A stretch of 64,000 bases of DNA from positions 1 through 64,000 of the forward strand of contig NZ_JAMFLH010000014.1 in NCBI RefSeq assembly GCF_023501975.1, given 5' to 3'. Source of the stretch: Altererythrobacter sp. KTW20L. Its GTDB lineage: Bacteria; Pseudomonadota; Alphaproteobacteria; Sphingomonadales; Sphingomonadaceae. Below the pieces are notes generated by a model. The model made no database searches. It saw only the letters and a list, made by a program, of their open reading frames with translations, and was not told where the DNA came from. Shown piece after piece: positions 2,281-40,609 of this stretch (positions within the stretch are counted from its first letter, which is position 1; each line of letters opens with the position of its first letter). The translations under genes and the position numbers were made by a program.

Positions 2281-4479
2281 ATGGAGCGGTGGATCAGGAT
2301 CGGGCCGGGTTTGGCCGTGCTGGCGCTGCTGGTGCTGTTGCAGTGGCTCGATCCCGCGCCGATGGAGCGGCTGCGGCTGCAGGTGTTCGACATGTTCCAG
2401 GTGGCTGCTCCCCGTAGTGCCGAGGGGGATGGCGGCGTGGTCGTGGTCGATATCGACGAGGCCTCGATCGCCGAGCTCGGCCAGTGGCCCTGGCCCCGCA
2501 CCGACCTGGCTACCCTGACCCGCCGGTTGGGGGAGGCGGGCGCCGCCGTGGTGGCCTTCGACGTGGTGTTTTCGGAGGAAGACCGCACCTCGCCCGATGC
2601 GCTCGCCCGGCGGCAGGCCGACCCCGCCGTGCGCGCCGCGCTGGAGGCCCTGCCCGGCCACGATGCCCTGCTGGCCGAGGCCTTTGCCGCCGTGCCCGTG
2701 GTGACCGCCACCTTCCTCGACCGCCGCCCGATGGGCCGCGCTTTCGAGCCCAAGGTGGGGTGGACGGTGCAGGGCTCTTTACCGGTGGCGCATCTGGAGG
2801 CCTATCAGGGCGCGCTCCAGCCGCTGCCAGTGCTTGAGGCGGCGGCGGCGGGCAACGGCTTTGTCAGCCTGGAGGGGGATGGCGACAGGATCGTGCGCCG
2901 CGTGCCGCTGGTGGCGCTGCATCGCGGCGTGCCGATCCCCTCGCTCGGGCTGGAGGCACTGCGCTTGGCCTTGGATGCAGACTCGCCCGTGCTGCTGGCG
3001 AGCGACGGCAGCGGGCAGGCGACCACGCGCGATGCGGCGGCCGTGGCCGTGCGGCTGGCGGGGCGCGAGATTCCGGTGACGGACGCGGGCGAGATGTGGG
3101 TCCACTTTGCCGCCAGCAACCCCGCGCCGCTATCCGCCGCGCCGATCGTGACGGGCGCGCTGTCCGATGCCGAGCTGGCGCGTCGGGTGGGCGGGGCCGT
3201 GGTGTTTGTTGGCGGGAGCGCGGCGGGCTTGCAGGACCTTGTCTCTACGCCGCTCAGCCCGCTCACCGCCGGGGTGAATGTCCATGCCGAGGCGGCGCGG
3301 CAGGTGCTGGCGGGGCACTTCCTCCAGCGGCCGGACTGGGCGGGCGGGCTGGAGCTGGTGCTGACGTTGCTGCTGGGGCTGACGCTGGCGCTGGTCACGC
3401 CGAGGCTTGGCGCGCTGTGGGGCGCGGTGGCGGCGCTGGCGGGGATTGCTGGCGTGGCGGGGGCGAGCTGGCTGGCCTTTACGCAAGCGCGCCTGCTGCT
3501 CGATCCGACATGGCCGATGGTGGCCGTGGCGCTGGTCTATGCCGTGCAGACGGTCAGCGCCTATTACCGCGAGGAGCGGCAGCGCAGCTATATCCGCAGC
3601 GCCTTCGACCGATACCTCTCGCCCGAACTGGTGCGGCAGATCGCGGCGGACCCCGGCAAGCTGGAGCTGGGCGGGGAGGAGCGCGACATGACCGTGCTGA
3701 TGGCCGATATCCGGGGCTTCAGCCGCATATCGGAGCGCCTGTCCCCGCGCCAGGTGATCGACTTCCTCATCACCTTCCTCACCCCGATGAGCGAGATACT
3801 CCTCGCCCGCCGCGCCACGCTCGACAAGTATATCGGCGATGCCGTGCTGGCCTTCTGGAACGCGCCATTGGACGATCCCGACCACCACGCCCAGGCCGCC
3901 CGCGCCGCGCTGGAGATGGTGGCGCGCACCGGGGAGCTCAACCGCACGATGCCCGGCACCCCCGGCGTCACCTGGCCGGGCGAGGTGACCATCGGGATCG
4001 GCCTCAATTCCGGGCTGTGCTGCGTGGGCAACATGGGCTCGCGCCAGCGCCTGTCCTATACTCTGATCGGCGACACGGTGAACATGGCGAGCCGGCTGGA
4101 GGGGCTGACCAAGCAATATGGCGTGAGCATTGTCACCGGCAGCGCGCTGGCGGCCGAGCTGAGCCACTTCGCCCTGATCGAGCTTGACCGCGTGCAGGTG
4201 GTGGGCCGCGACGCGCCCGAGACGATCCACGCCCTGCTGGGTGACGAGACCCTGGCCGCCACCCCGCAGTTCCACGCGCTCGCCGAGACCCACGCCATGT
4301 TCCTGGCCGCAACCCGCGCGCAGGACTGGCAGGCGGCAGAGGCGGCGCTGGCCTCGGCCGACTACGATGCACTCGGCCTCGCCCCCTTGCAGGACATCAT
4401 GCGCGCCCGCGTGGCCAGCCTGCGCGCCAATCCGCCGGGGGCGGGGTGGGACGGGGTGTTCCGGGCGAGTGAGAAGTGA
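2281..4479 (+). CDS. CHASE2 domain adenylate/guanylate cyclase
   Basis: A 732-residue membrane sensor that should make a cyclic nucleotide. A single membrane helix lies at residues ~8-24, followed by an extracytoplasmic CHASE2 domain (VVVVDIDEASIAELGQWPWP begins it) to about residue 345, then a block of hydrophobic helices (~360-425). The C-terminal class III cyclase domain starts near residue 465: MADIRGF near 475 and KYIGDAVLAFWNAP near 517 supply the two metal-binding aspartates, and LIGDTVNMASRLEGL is the later conserved segment. The start is supported by a strong GGAGGAGGGGAG ribosome site. Substrate choice (ATP or GTP) cannot be read with certainty. CHASE2 proteins often neighbour FecR proteins, and one lies at 8.3-9.2 kb on the other strand. 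Confidence 0.92.
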   Translation: MERWIRIGPGLAVLALLVLLQWLDPAPMERLRLQVFDMFQVAAPRSAEGDGGVVVVDIDEASIAELGQWPWPRTDLATLTRRLGEAGAAVVAFDVVFSEEDRTSPDALARRQADPAVRAALEALPGHDALLAEAFAAVPVVTATFLDRRPMGRAFEPKVGWTVQGSLPVAHLEAYQGALQPLPVLEAAAAGNGFVSLEGDGDRIVRRVPLVALHRGVPIPSLGLEALRLALDADSPVLLASDGSGQATTRDAAAVAVRLAGREIPVTDAGEMWVHFAASNPAPLSAAPIVTGALSDAELARRVGGAVVFVGGSAAGLQDLVSTPLSPLTAGVNVHAEAARQVLAGHFLQRPDWAGGLELVLTLLLGLTLALVTPRLGALWGAVAALAGIAGVAGASWLAFTQARLLLDPTWPMVAVALVYAVQTVSAYYREERQRSYIRSAFDRYLSPELVRQIAADPGKLELGGEERDMTVLMADIRGFSRISERLSPRQVIDFLITFLTPMSEILLARRATLDKYIGDAVLAFWNAPLDDPDHHAQAARAALEMVARTGELNRTMPGTPGVTWPGEVTIGIGLNSGLCCVGNMGSRQRLSYTLIGDTVNMASRLEGLTKQYGVSIVTGSALAAELSHFALIELDRVQVVGRDAPETIHALLGDETLAATPQFHALAETHAMFLAATRAQDWQAAEAALASADYDALGLAPLQDIMRARVASLRANPPGAGWDGVFRASEK

Positions 4480-4486
4480 CGGGGCG

Positions 4487-7400
4487 TCAGGCCGACCCCG
4501 CCCGTTCCTGGTTCAGGCGGAACAGGCGGGCGAGTATCTCGTCATCGGTCAACAGGCCTGCGCGCCAGTCGTCACCCCAGCCGTATGCCTCGGCCACGGC
4601 CTCGTCCAAGGCCTTGTGCGCGTTGTCCAGCCATGCGGGGCGCGCGTTGTAGAGGTTGGTGAGAGTGCGCTTGGCCAGTTCCCTGGCCGCTGCCTCGTCC
4701 TTCGGCAGCACGCGGTCCGGGTATCCGGGCACCACTTCGGGCACCCGCACCACCAGGTCCGCCGGATTGAGCCAGTTCTCGCGCAATTCGTTCAATCGCG
4801 CGGCGGCGGCGGCGATGGCTTGCGCGCGAGGATCGGCGGCATAGTCTGCGGCGGGAATGTTTGGCGTCAGGCCTTCGGGGAAGGGGAAGGTTTCGAAGGT
4901 GGTGGACGGGGTATAGCGCGGATCATTGCCCACGCCGAGGAAAGTGCCCATGCGGAGTGACCACAGTTCGTGGAAGCGCGAGTGGAGCACGCCGAAGGTG
5001 GTGTCGTCGTCGCGGGCTATAACAACAAGCTGACAGTCGGGTAAAACTGCGCTGTCTAGCAAAGCAAATAGACGATGCTTCGCAACTCTTGGAGTTACAA
5101 TATATCGAGAAAGTGAGGCTAGCGCCCTCCTCATACCGGGTCGGGCCTCGCCGTGAATCCACCAATTGTTGCGATGGTTAGCCCTGCGTACGTTCTCTCG
5201 CATAGGTCGAACCAGTGCGTGCACGATTTCGAACGGCTGCTCGTACAGCATGGCGTCGTCCTTCGACATTTCGGTGCCAAAGTCGATTATCCATTTCCCA
5301 CTCGCCCTCCGAGTGACATCCATCCCGTTCATCCACAAGCGAAGGACATCCCTGTTTGGCTTTCCGTTAGGGTTTCCTCTGCTCACCAAAAGATCGCGAG
5401 CAAGCTCGCCAGAAAGGTCAAATGGTCCGTTCTTTTGGTCGCCAATGAAGGCTTGCCCAGAATTTGATCTCAAAGGCACCGCTGACGAAAGGTCGAACGA
5501 ATCGTTGTTGGAAGTAAGGTCAGCGAGAGTTCGCGTGACGATATTTCCGTTGAGCCGGCTAGACCTATTGCCGACAAGGCTAAAGCACACGAGCGAGACT
5601 CTCACCGCCGCACCGTCGACTGTCCAGCCCTCATCGCTCCATGCTTCAAATATTTGGCCAAGTTCGACCACTTCTCTAAGCACGATACGATTTGCTCCGC
5701 CTCGGACCGAGTTCGTCGCAACAAAGCCAGCTCATTCCAATTTGCGCGCCACGATCCTGTCCCAAGCAGCAGCAAACCAAAAGCAAACCAAATCAGCTCC
5801 GCCGGGCACTTGGGGCCACGCCTTGCGCAGGGCGTGGGTATAATCCTCGCCCAGCTCGGCAATCATCTTCTTGTCGCCAAGAAACGGCGGGTTGCCCACC
5901 ACCACGTCAGCATCGGGCCACTTTGCGCGACGCGGGCCTGAATTAACTTCCGCCCCCTCTTCCCCGTCACCCCGGGCTTGACCCGGGGTCCCGCTGTTGT
6001 CTTCGCCGCCTGAAGCAGCGGGACCCCGGCTCGGGGGCCGGGGTGACGAAGTAGGGGGGGCCCAATCCAGCACGGCATCGCGGCATTCAATCGTATCGAG
6101 GTTCCGCAGGATCGGGTTCTTCGCCGCATCAAAGCCGTTGCGCTTCATCCACTGGATTTCACCGATCCACACGGAGACCCGCGCCAGTTCGGCGGCATAG
6201 GGGTTCAATTCGATTCCCAGCACGCTCTCCGGGCCAACTCTCGGGAAGCCGCGCGGCAGGCCCAGCGCTTCGGCATCCAGATTGGCGCGATGTTCGATGT
6301 CCTTCAGCGCCTTCAGCGCCACATAAAGGAAATTGCCCGAACCGCAGGCGGGATCGAGCACGCGGAAGTTCACCAGCCGTTCGATAAAGGCCAGGTGGAT
6401 GGCGCCGGCATCGGCCAGCAGCTTTTCGCCCTTGCGCTTTTCGGCAGGGGACAGCAGCCGTTCCGCCGTGCGGCGCGGCATGGCATCGACCAGCGCGGTC
6501 ATTTTCCCCAGCGCTTCGGCCCATTCGGCCTCCAGCGGGTCGATAATCACCGGCTGCACGATCATCATGATCTTTTCGCGGTCGGTATAGTGCGCGCCAA
6601 GCTGGCTGCGCTTGGCCGGGTCCAGCCCGCGTTCGAACAGGGTGCCAAGGATGGATGGATCGATCTGCGACCAGTCACGCTGGGCGGCGCGGTGCAGGTC
6701 TTCCACGTCCTGCCGCGAAACGGGCAGGGCGTGATCATCGGCAAACAGGCCGCCGTTGAACCAGTCAATCCGCTGGAACCCCACCTTGCCGCCCTGTTGC
6801 GCCATCGCGCCGAACAGCGTTCCGGCATGTTCGGCGAAGCTGTCAGGATCGGTCCGGCACAGGTCCAGCATTCGGGTAAACAGGTTATCGGGCAGCAGGC
6901 CGGTGTCTTCGGCAAACATGCAGAACACCAGCAGGTTGACGAAGTGCGCCACGCGGTGCGCTTCGTGCCCGCGATCGCGCAGGCGCTGGGCAATCCCAGC
7001 AAATTCGCGGGCGGTTTCCTCGGTCAGCGCGGCGCGGGTCTTGCTGGGCTTGAAGTGTTCGGGATCGGTGAAGGCGCGCTTCAGCTGTTCGCGGACATTG
7101 CCATCCAGCAGGTCTTCCAGCGTGTATTCGTGCACCTCGTGGACGGTGTTGGTCCAGTTGGTGTGGATCACGATGCGATCCATGTCGGACACGATCAGCA
7201 GCGGCGGACTGTCCAGCGCCACGCTGTATTGCTGCAACTGGGCATAGGCCTTGTTCAGATCCTTGCCCTGGCCCTTGTACTCCCAGGCGAAGCATTCCTT
7301 GCGCCAGACATCTGCCCAGCCTTCGCCGCCGGTGGTCTTGCTGGCGCCCTTTTCAAAGGCGAACCATTCGCCCTTGGGATCGGCGGTGATCGGATCGAGC

Positions 7401-7501
7401 AGGCCGAGCAGGGCGCAAAGATCGTTGAAGTGGCTGTGCGAGCCGGACCGTTCCTTCTGGTCGGCTGCGCGCCACTTGGCGATGAAATCCTGTGGCGTCA
7501 T
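4487..7501 (-). pseudogene. MmeI-like type IIL restriction-methylation gene interrupted by one TGA
   Basis: Read through, this frame gives about 1,003 residues, the size of MmeI-type enzymes that cut and methylate DNA in one chain. Order: N-terminal nuclease with D64-x9-E74-x-K76, a helical linker, the methyltransferase with DPACGSGNFLY (motif I) and NPPFLG near residue 537 (motif IV), then the target-recognition and C-terminal helical domains. A TGA at 5732-5734 stops translation after 589 residues (ending ARKLE). The same frame continues at once with AGFVATNSVRGGANR, a conserved stretch of this family, so a single CGA-to-TGA change is the simplest cause. A GTG at 5681-5683 could start the downstream 398-residue half. 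The upstream product keeps both catalytic centres but lacks target recognition. Start ATG at 7501 (MTPQDFIAKW). About 5020-5800 is A+T-richer than the rest. Confidence 0.85.
5966..6047. repeat. Palindromic repeat inserted in frame in the MmeI-like gene
   Basis: Two arms of about 31 bases (5966-5996 and 6016-6047) form a long imperfect inverted repeat; the outer GTCACCCCGG/CCGGGGTGAC and inner CCGGGGTCCCGCTG/CAGCGGGACCCCGG blocks pair exactly. The element is open in the gene's frame and adds a low-complexity Pro/Gly/Ser stretch at about residues 484-525, just before NPPF. G+C-rich palindromic elements of this style are widespread in alphaproteobacterial genomes. Confidence 0.8.
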
Positions 7502-7549
7502 GCGCTCTACTTTGCAGCGCGCCGTCCTGCATCGCAAGCCATGCCTGCC

Positions 7550-8179
7550 CTAATCCCCCGCCAGCTTGGCCATGATCCGCAGCGCGTTATCCTCTGCCTG
7601 CTTTTCCAGTCCGGTGTAGCCCAGCACATAGGTGCGGGCGAAGCGGTCCACGCCCAGTTCCTGGTATTGCACCACGTGGGTCAGTTCATGCGCCCACAGT
7701 CGCAGGTCGCGGGTGCCGCGGACGGAGGAGAACACGATCACGTCCTCCAGCACCACGGCCCCTTCGGTAAGGTACCAGGTGGTGAGCACCGTGCCGAGGT
7801 TCATGCTGCCGGTGGCGGGTTTCCACCGCACGTGGTCGAAATCGATCGAGGTGAAGTGCGGTTCGAGCTGCTCGCGGATATCGTCGGGAATGGGCAGGGT
7901 GCGTTCGGTGCGGGCCTGGTTGCGCGACAGGCGGATGGTGTGGGCCAGGGCTGCTCCGCCAAGCTCGCGGGCGACATTGTCGGTGGCGCTGCGCACCTGC
8001 CGGTCGGTCTGCCGGGCGATGGCGCGGGCGTCACGTTCAAGGTCGTAGGTGCGCAGCATGGCGGCGGGCGAATGACCGGTAAGGTGCAGAGCCGCCAGCG
8101 CGACTCCCGCCAGCAGGCACAGGACCAGCAGGGCGTAGGCCAAGCGGCGCGGCCAGCGGCTTTTGCGCTTTGCAGTCAT
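7550..8179 (-). CDS. DUF4157-like (eCIS core) membrane-anchored zinc protease-like protein
   Basis: A 209-residue protein with a positively charged start and one membrane helix (about residues 11-30), so the rest probably faces the periplasm. The C-terminal half contains HELTHVVQYQELG, an HExxH zinc-metalloprotease motif of the kind found in DUF4157 ('eCIS core') proteins, preceded by VIVFSSVRG and followed by helices. Family members linked to contractile injection systems carry toxin domains; here no toxin domain and no tail or sheath genes are present, so this is a stand-alone member of unknown substrate. It lies between the FecR gene and the broken restriction gene on the same strand, 48 bp upstream of the latter. 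Confidence 0.75.
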   Translation of the reverse strand: MTAKRKSRWPRRLAYALLVLCLLAGVALAALHLTGHSPAAMLRTYDLERDARAIARQTDRQVRSATDNVARELGGAALAHTIRLSRNQARTERTLPIPDDIREQLEPHFTSIDFDHVRWKPATGSMNLGTVLTTWYLTEGAVVLEDVIVFSSVRGTRDLRLWAHELTHVVQYQELGVDRFARTYVLGYTGLEKQAEDNALRIMAKLAGD

Positions 8180-8264
8180 GGGGCGGGGATCAGTTCAGGA
8201 CGGGCGGGGTTGGCAGGTGGCATGGCGGATCAATGCCCCAGCGGGCGAAGGGTTCTCGTGGAAC

Positions 8265-9185
8265 CTATGGTCCCTGGTTGGGCGAAGGCGGTGCGGTGGG
8301 GCTGGTGCCCGGACCCTGCGCGCCGGTTGGGCCCGGATCGTCGTTGTCATCATCACCGCCGGACAGCAGCACGGCTGCGCCCACCACGGCCGCCGCGCCC
8401 ACGGCCACGGGGATCAGCGTGTTGAGGAACCCGTCACCGCCGCGCGCATCGGCCACGGCGGGCATGACCCGCGCCTGCACGCGGGCAAGCCCCGCATCGC
8501 TGATCTGGAACGGCCCTTGCGGCGGCGCTCCGTTGCGGGGGATGAAGGCGGCAAGGCCCGGCCGGTCGAGCACCACGGTGACGCCGGCGGCGGTGACCGT
8601 GGCGAGGCCGGGGGTGAGGCCGCCCGCGGTATTCTCGCCCGGGCCGCGCAGGACCACCAGCGTTGCCTCGTCCCGGTCGATGCCGCCGCGTTCGACGGCC
8701 GGTTCGTCCCGCGCAATGCCACGGGCGCGTTCGCCCACCAGCATGTCGAGCGCGGTGCCGCGGATGCCGATGCGGCCCGAAGGCATGGTGATCTCCGCCG
8801 TGTCGGCCGCATTGCTGCGCCCCGAAAAGAACCGCAGCGCGCCCTGGGTGATCGTGGCGAACAGCGAGCGGCCCTCGTTCGGATCATAGACGAAGCGGTC
8901 GATGGTGAGGCGCGAGCGGGCGCCCATGCCGAAGGTCGAACGGTCGAGCAGGAGGATCTGCAGCTGCGAATCCCGCCCGGTCTCGATCCGGTCACCCCAG
9001 GCGATGCGCTGGCGGCGCTCGATCTGGCGCGGCTGGGCCGTGGGGCCGGCGCCAAGCCGGACCTGCCCCACCACGCTGGCGGCATTGCCCACCTCGACCC
9101 GTTCCTGCGCATGGGCGGGGGCGGCCAGGGCAGCGAGCGCGGTGCCGAGGGCCAGCAGGGCGAGCGGGCGCGGGGTGCGGATCAT
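8265..9185 (-). CDS. FecR domain protein with C-terminal membrane helix and Gly/Pro tail
   Basis: A 306-residue exported protein. A signal peptide ends at AHAQ (about residue 27). Residues ~55-160 form the FecR domain: WGDRIETGRDSQLQILLLD, then an F-x-x-x-QGALRFFSG segment and TPSGRIGIRGT-like ITMPSGRIGIRGT, the usual family signature. Near the C-terminus is a hydrophobic stretch (LIPVAVGAAAVVGAAVLL) followed by an Asp- and Gly/Pro-rich tail. No FecI sigma factor is near, so this is not an iron-citrate type regulator; such solitary FecR proteins are often paired with CHASE2 or TPR proteins. It starts 3 bp after the stop of the small secreted protein, so the two form an operon. Confidence 0.85.
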   Translation of the reverse strand: MIRTPRPLALLALGTALAALAAPAHAQERVEVGNAASVVGQVRLGAGPTAQPRQIERRQRIAWGDRIETGRDSQLQILLLDRSTFGMGARSRLTIDRFVYDPNEGRSLFATITQGALRFFSGRSNAADTAEITMPSGRIGIRGTALDMLVGERARGIARDEPAVERGGIDRDEATLVVLRGPGENTAGGLTPGLATVTAAGVTVVLDRPGLAAFIPRNGAPPQGPFQISDAGLARVQARVMPAVADARGGDGFLNTLIPVAVGAAAVVGAAVLLSGGDDDNDDPGPTGAQGPGTSPTAPPSPNQGP

Positions 9186-40405: not shown

Positions 40406-40609
40406 GGCAGATCCTCCTCGAAAGCTGTGGAGCCGGAGTCTTCGGTGACGGCGAAGGGGTGGAGAGCCGACACCGGGCAAACCCCGGCGCGGTCCGACAT
40501 CACGACCAGATGGTCGCCAGAGGGGCCCGGTCCCGCAAGGTGCATAGTAGGCAACTGCTGCCGGGTGGCAATTGATCCCGCGCAAGTGCCCGCCTTTGTC
40601 GGGTCGATG

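What the first reader, a model, noticed from the sequence alone, without database searches (positions are those of the whole stretch)
5681..5740. MmeI-like gene broken by a single in-frame TGA
The frame ends at TGA 5732-5734 after ARKLE and goes on in the same frame with AGFVATNSVRGGANR, conserved in this family. Family members commonly have arginine just before AGFVATNS, so CGA to TGA is the simplest change. The truncated product would keep the nuclease and methyltransferase centres but lose target recognition.
Basis: partly seen in the sequence, partly recalled or inferred. Interest (0 to 1): 0.7.

Follow-up and report, generated by a model that had tools for sequence, protein, structure and literature searches.

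The report
Nonsense-broken MmeI-type restriction gene
A bacterial gene for an MmeI-type enzyme that both cuts and methylates DNA is interrupted by one stop codon about 60% of the way along, which very probably leaves the defence system switched off; this is an ordinary, recent-looking broken gene of a known family.

Summary
On the minus strand a gene from ATG 7501 runs to TGA 5732-5734 and continues in the same frame to TGA 4487-4489. Read through, it is one Type IIL/IIG (MmeI-family) restriction-methylation enzyme: PADLOC 1055 bits over residues 13-1014, 54-71% identical to 80 relatives, 77 of them uninterrupted. Arg occupies the stop's position in 79 of 88 aligned relatives; none has a stop there. 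After the stop, 81 of 81 near-invariant columns are unchanged, so the mutation looks recent. Other members break at other positions (3 of 80 chromosomal relatives, several plasmid copies), so this is not a conserved natural end or split. It loses over a quarter of that domain, including the counterpart of MmeI Trp570, plus the target-recognition and C-terminal domains. Selenocysteine is unlikely (no selA). Sequencing error, readthrough and restart are not excluded but less likely. In passing: a palindromic repeat is inserted in frame just before catalytic NPPF; four relatives carry unrelated palindromic repeats in the same loop.

The parts
4487..7501 (-). Interrupted MmeI-family (Type IIL/IIG) restriction-methyltransferase gene, whole length
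   Evidence: one continuous family match across the TGA
5732..5734 (-). In-frame TGA stop (residue 602 of the read-through numbering that starts at TTG 7537)
   Evidence: Arg in 79 of 88 relatives
5735..7501 (-). Predicted truncated product, 589 aa: nuclease, helical spacer, about three quarters of the MTase domain
7274..7312 (-). PD-(D/E)XK nuclease motif, D-x9-E-x-K (D76, E86, K88), intact
   Evidence: the three residues are invariant in 82 of 82 relatives
6329..6355 (-). MTase motif I, DPACGSGNF, intact
5882..5893 (-). MTase motif IV, NPPF, intact
5964..6050 (.). Palindromic repeat element (hairpin) inserted in frame in the MTase, before NPPF
   Evidence: other copies in own genome, hairpin z = -7.3, loop about 40 aa longer than in most relatives
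5624..5626 (-). Codon of Trp638, counterpart of MmeI Trp570 (flipped-adenine pocket), beyond the stop
   Evidence: alignment to 5hr4; W in 81 of 82 relatives
4874..5473 (-). Target-recognition domain (approximate limits), beyond the stop
   Evidence: and MmeI domain limits in PMC4833311
4490..4873 (-). C-terminal helical domain, beyond the stop
   Evidence: (MmeI_C, below curated cut-off)
5681..5683 (-). GTG that could restart translation (398 aa); GGAG 11 nt upstream
   Evidence: sequence; function not tested

Best explanation
The gene is a horizontally acquired, single-chain MmeI-family restriction-and-modification enzyme that a recent nonsense mutation has inactivated. Shown: the in-frame stop, Arg at that place in nearly all relatives, an otherwise undamaged gene, and a truncated MTase domain with no TRD. 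Inferred: the 589-aa product cannot methylate or find a target, so neither restriction nor modification takes place. Loss is tolerated because in this family one target-recognition domain serves both activities, so both are lost together and no unprotected nuclease is left.
For: One TGA in an otherwise open 1,004-codon frame. Read-through protein matches PDLC03627 Type IIG at 1055 bits over 13-1014 and 80 named relatives along their length. Arg in 79 of 88 at the stop position. 0 of 81 near-invariant columns changed after the stop and 2 of 187 before it; relatives average 1.8 and 2.0. Stop at profile position 187 of 259 of MmeI_Mtase; MmeI MTase is residues 301-620, TRD 621-825, and Trp570 is absolutely conserved (PMC4833311; alignment). 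Broken copies with stops at other positions in relatives: 631 (L078), 648 (L054), 749 (L073), plasmid copies at 276 and 587/593 and with frameshifts. selA absent. No matching gene at this site in five congeners.
Against: No expression, methylome or read data could be examined. No second strain of the species was available, so the age of the stop and its fixation are unknown. A young, undecayed gene is also what a sequencing error, a readthrough gene or a reversible allele would look like.
Confidence: 0.82

Rival explanations
1. Sequencing or assembly error: the real gene is intact and the enzyme active.
For: Nothing else in the gene is damaged; no reads were available.
Against: It is a substitution, not a homopolymer indel; the assembly is good (35 contigs, 99.99% complete, 0 contamination); similar single stops occur in three other relatives.
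Confidence: 0.08
2. Leaky or regulated stop: some ribosomes read through the TGA and make low amounts of active enzyme.
For: In-frame stops in bacterial genes often sit in sequences still under purifying selection and are usually short-lived (PMC7918605). Constraint after the stop looks unrelaxed.
Against: No relative has a stop at this position; the stops of relatives lie elsewhere; the following base is G, not the C or A of the classical leaky UGA contexts (general knowledge); no selA.
Confidence: 0.05
3. Two-piece enzyme: translation restarts at GTG 5681-5683 and the 398-aa C-terminal piece (TRD) joins the 589-aa N-terminal piece, as in split R-M/S systems.
For: A GTG with GGAG 11 nt upstream lies 16 codons after the stop.
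Against: The cut falls inside the MTase domain rather than at a domain border. No relative is split at this place.
Confidence: 0.05

Closest known systems
MmeI (Methylophilus methylotrophus; PDB 5hr4), Type IIL
   Same: Order nuclease, helical spacer, gamma-class MTase with DPACG...NPPF, TRD, C-terminal helices; D-x9-E-x-K
   Different: Distant in sequence (E-value 2.7e-36 to 5hr4); interrupted by a stop; carries a palindromic insert before NPPF
PADLOC REase_MTase_IIG subfamily PDLC03627 and intact relatives such as L032, L034, L035 (alphaproteobacteria)
   Same: Same subfamily, full-length, up to 71% identity
   Different: They are uninterrupted at this position
Helicobacter pylori Type IIG genes JHP1272 and HP1353-HP1354 (PMC3936762)
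   Same: Type IIG R-M genes in which interruptions of the reading frame switch the enzyme off or truncate it
   Different: There the switch is slippage in homopolymer repeats; here it is a substitution with no homopolymer or short repeat at the stop

Membership tests
MmeI-family Type IIL/IIG restriction-modification enzyme | N-terminal PD-(D/E)XK nuclease motif | tested here: met
   D76-x9-E86-x-K88, invariant in relatives
MmeI-family Type IIL/IIG restriction-modification enzyme | gamma-class MTase motifs I and IV | tested here: met
   DPACGSGNF and NPPF present
MmeI-family Type IIL/IIG restriction-modification enzyme | MTase, TRD and C-terminal domain in one open reading frame | tested here: not met
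   TGA at 5732-5734 cuts the frame inside the MTase; the allele is a broken member, not a functional one
MmeI-family Type IIL/IIG restriction-modification enzyme | Whole-length similarity to the family when read through | tested here: met
   1055 bits over 13-1014; 80 relatives
MmeI-family Type IIL/IIG restriction-modification enzyme | 6mA methylation of an asymmetric motif and cutting about 20 nt away | not testable with these tools
   needs modification calling or biochemistry
Phase-variable R-M gene (slippage type) | Homopolymer or short repeat at the frame break | tested here: not met
   None at the stop; nearest is a two-copy 11-bp repeat at 5771-5792 that lies in normal family sequence
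Selenoprotein | Selenocysteine machinery in the genome | tested here: not met
   selA absent, control genomes ring

The most novel reading that the evidence does not exclude
Lone in-frame stops in MmeI-type genes are a recurrent, reversible off-state that populations keep as a standing defence reserve, rather than one-way decay: window 602, L078 631, L054 648 and L073 749 all fall between the catalytic NPPF and the middle of the TRD.
Probability: 0.07. Interest if true: 0.45.

Novelty: new member of a known kind. Interest (0 to 1): 0.17.

Why it matters
It shows that annotation of this genome should not credit it with an active Type IIL system, and it adds to evidence that single-chain restriction-methylation enzymes can be lost safely in one step. 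The side observation, that unrelated palindromic repeats repeatedly land in frame in one loop next to the catalytic NPPF, is the more unusual point and could be tested across the whole family.

Tried and rejected
TRD swap as the cause of the low-GC stretch (about 5000-5800): rejected as special, because most relatives also have a TRD poorer in GC than the rest of the gene. Selenocysteine or recoding of TGA: rejected, no selA and TGA ends neighbouring genes and this gene. A natural family end or split at this position: rejected. Phase variation by slippage: no homopolymer or short repeat at the stop. Clustering of stops: the four in-frame stops in this set lie within 148 residues (chance about 1% for four random points, my estimate), but plasmid and other-subfamily copies break at about 276, 289, 430, 550 and 587, so I do not rely on it.

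Full report
Observation. On the minus strand, ATG 7501 opens a frame that reads ...FWFAAAWDRIVARKLE and then TGA at 5732-5734; the same frame continues AGFVATNSVRGGANR... for 414 codons to TGA 4487-4489. No other stop lies in the frame, and the site occurs once in the genome, a 3.09-Mb assembly of 35 contigs, 99.99% complete.

Identity. Read through, the protein matches the PADLOC Type IIG restriction enzyme-methyltransferase PDLC03627 at 1055 bits over residues 13-1014. Pfam finds MmeI_Mtase and MmeI_hel above cut-off, and MmeI_TRD and MmeI_C below it. The only solved relative found by sequence is MmeI, 5hr4. The catalytic residues of both activities are intact: D76-x9-E86-x-K88, DPACGSGNF and NPPF, all invariant or nearly so among 82 relatives. 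Eighty relatives were fetched, mainly from alphaproteobacteria, with best-segment identity of 54-71%.

The stop. In an alignment of 88 relatives the position of the stop holds Arg in 79 and other sense residues in 9; none has a stop there. No relative ends naturally here: 77 of the 80 named relatives have a single frame, and three have one in-frame stop elsewhere, at positions 631 (L078), 648 (L054) and 749 (L073). Plasmid relatives are broken as well, at 276 and 587/593, or by frameshifts near 430 and 550. Breakage is thus recurrent in the family, at no fixed place.

Age. At columns at least 95% conserved, the window protein differs at 2 of 187 before the stop and 0 of 81 after it; relatives average 2.0 and 1.8. 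The part beyond the stop shows no sign of decay, so the stop is probably young. The same pattern would be seen if the sequence were in error or the stop were read through; Belinky and co-workers found that in-frame stops in bacteria are often short-lived and embedded in sequence still under purifying selection (PMC7918605).

Consequence. In MmeI the MTase domain is residues 301-620, the TRD 621-825 and the C-terminal helices 826-919; Trp570 helps form the pocket for the flipped adenine and is reported as absolutely conserved (PMC4833311). The alignment to 5hr4 places the stop near MmeI residue 535 and puts Trp570 opposite Trp638 here, beyond the stop. Pfam agrees: the product ends at position 187 of 259 of the MTase profile. 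The truncated protein therefore lacks more than a quarter of the MTase fold as well as the TRD. That it is inert is inference, but strong: without these parts neither methylation nor targeted cutting is expected. Because both activities share one TRD, a single stop should remove both at once, which would make the loss safe for the host (inference from the family's known design).

Alternatives. Selenocysteine is very unlikely: no selA in the genome while control genomes ring. Slippage phase variation is not indicated: no homopolymer or short tandem repeat at the stop, unlike the Helicobacter Type IIG genes (PMC3936762). A restart at GTG 5681-5683 is possible on paper but would split the MTase domain and is not conserved as an arrangement.

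Setting. In five congeners the CHASE2 adenylate cyclase gene (2281-4479 here) is followed directly by a convergent FecR-domain gene; here the MmeI-type gene and a 209-aa eCIS-core-domain gene (7550-8179) lie between them. The eCIS-core-domain protein was found in none of the other 39 genomes of the genus searched, and only remote MmeI relatives occur in the genus. The gene is therefore most simply read as an acquired, dispensable insert.

Side observation. The stretch 5964-6050 is a palindromic repeat with several further copies in the genome; those checked in detail lie essentially between genes. It folds as a long hairpin (z = -7.3) and sits in frame about 23 codons upstream of NPPF, in a loop about 40 residues longer than in most relatives. 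Four relatives (L033, L039, L094, L102) carry unrelated hairpin-forming repeats in the same loop; for three of them I confirmed that the repeat recurs in their own genomes, with 43 (L039), 28 (L102) and 9 (L033) matches, some of them two strands of one copy. Nearly all long insertions in this alignment fall there. In-frame palindromic insertions in proteins are known from Rickettsia (recalled; papers on the topic listed), so the kind is known, but the repeated use of one loop beside a catalytic motif deserves a dedicated count. Since relatives with such inserts keep open frames, the insert need not have inactivated the enzyme.

Verdict. It is an ordinary, probably recent nonsense allele of a known family, of low interest in itself.

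Noticed in passing
5964-6050: Palindromic repeat element inserted in frame in the MTase domain just before NPPF; unrelated palindromic repeats occupy the same loop in relatives L033, L039, L094 and L102, so the loop looks like an insertion hot spot.
   Followed up: partly
4480-8265: Between the CHASE2 cyclase gene and the FecR gene, adjacent in five congeners (gap of roughly 180-320 bp), an insert of about 3.8 kb holds the MmeI-type gene and an eCIS-core-domain protein gene; congener G031 (L145) has other genes (a TonB-receptor-like frame and a second frame) at the same junction.
   Followed up: partly
7550-8179: 209-aa protein with an eCIS core domain (PF13699), found in none of the other 39 genomes of the genus searched.
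   Followed up: no
5771-5792: Perfect two-copy 11-bp direct repeat in the coding sequence, about 37 bp before the stop; it lies in normal family sequence, but slippage there would shift the frame.
   Followed up: no
L054 3496, L073 6050, L078 5756: Three relatives (uncultured Sulfitobacter, Tritonibacter scottomollicae, uncultured Erythrobacter) each have one in-frame stop, at different positions.
   Followed up: partly
40485-40538: Rfam terC RNA (RF03067) on the minus strand, 59.3 bits.
   Followed up: no
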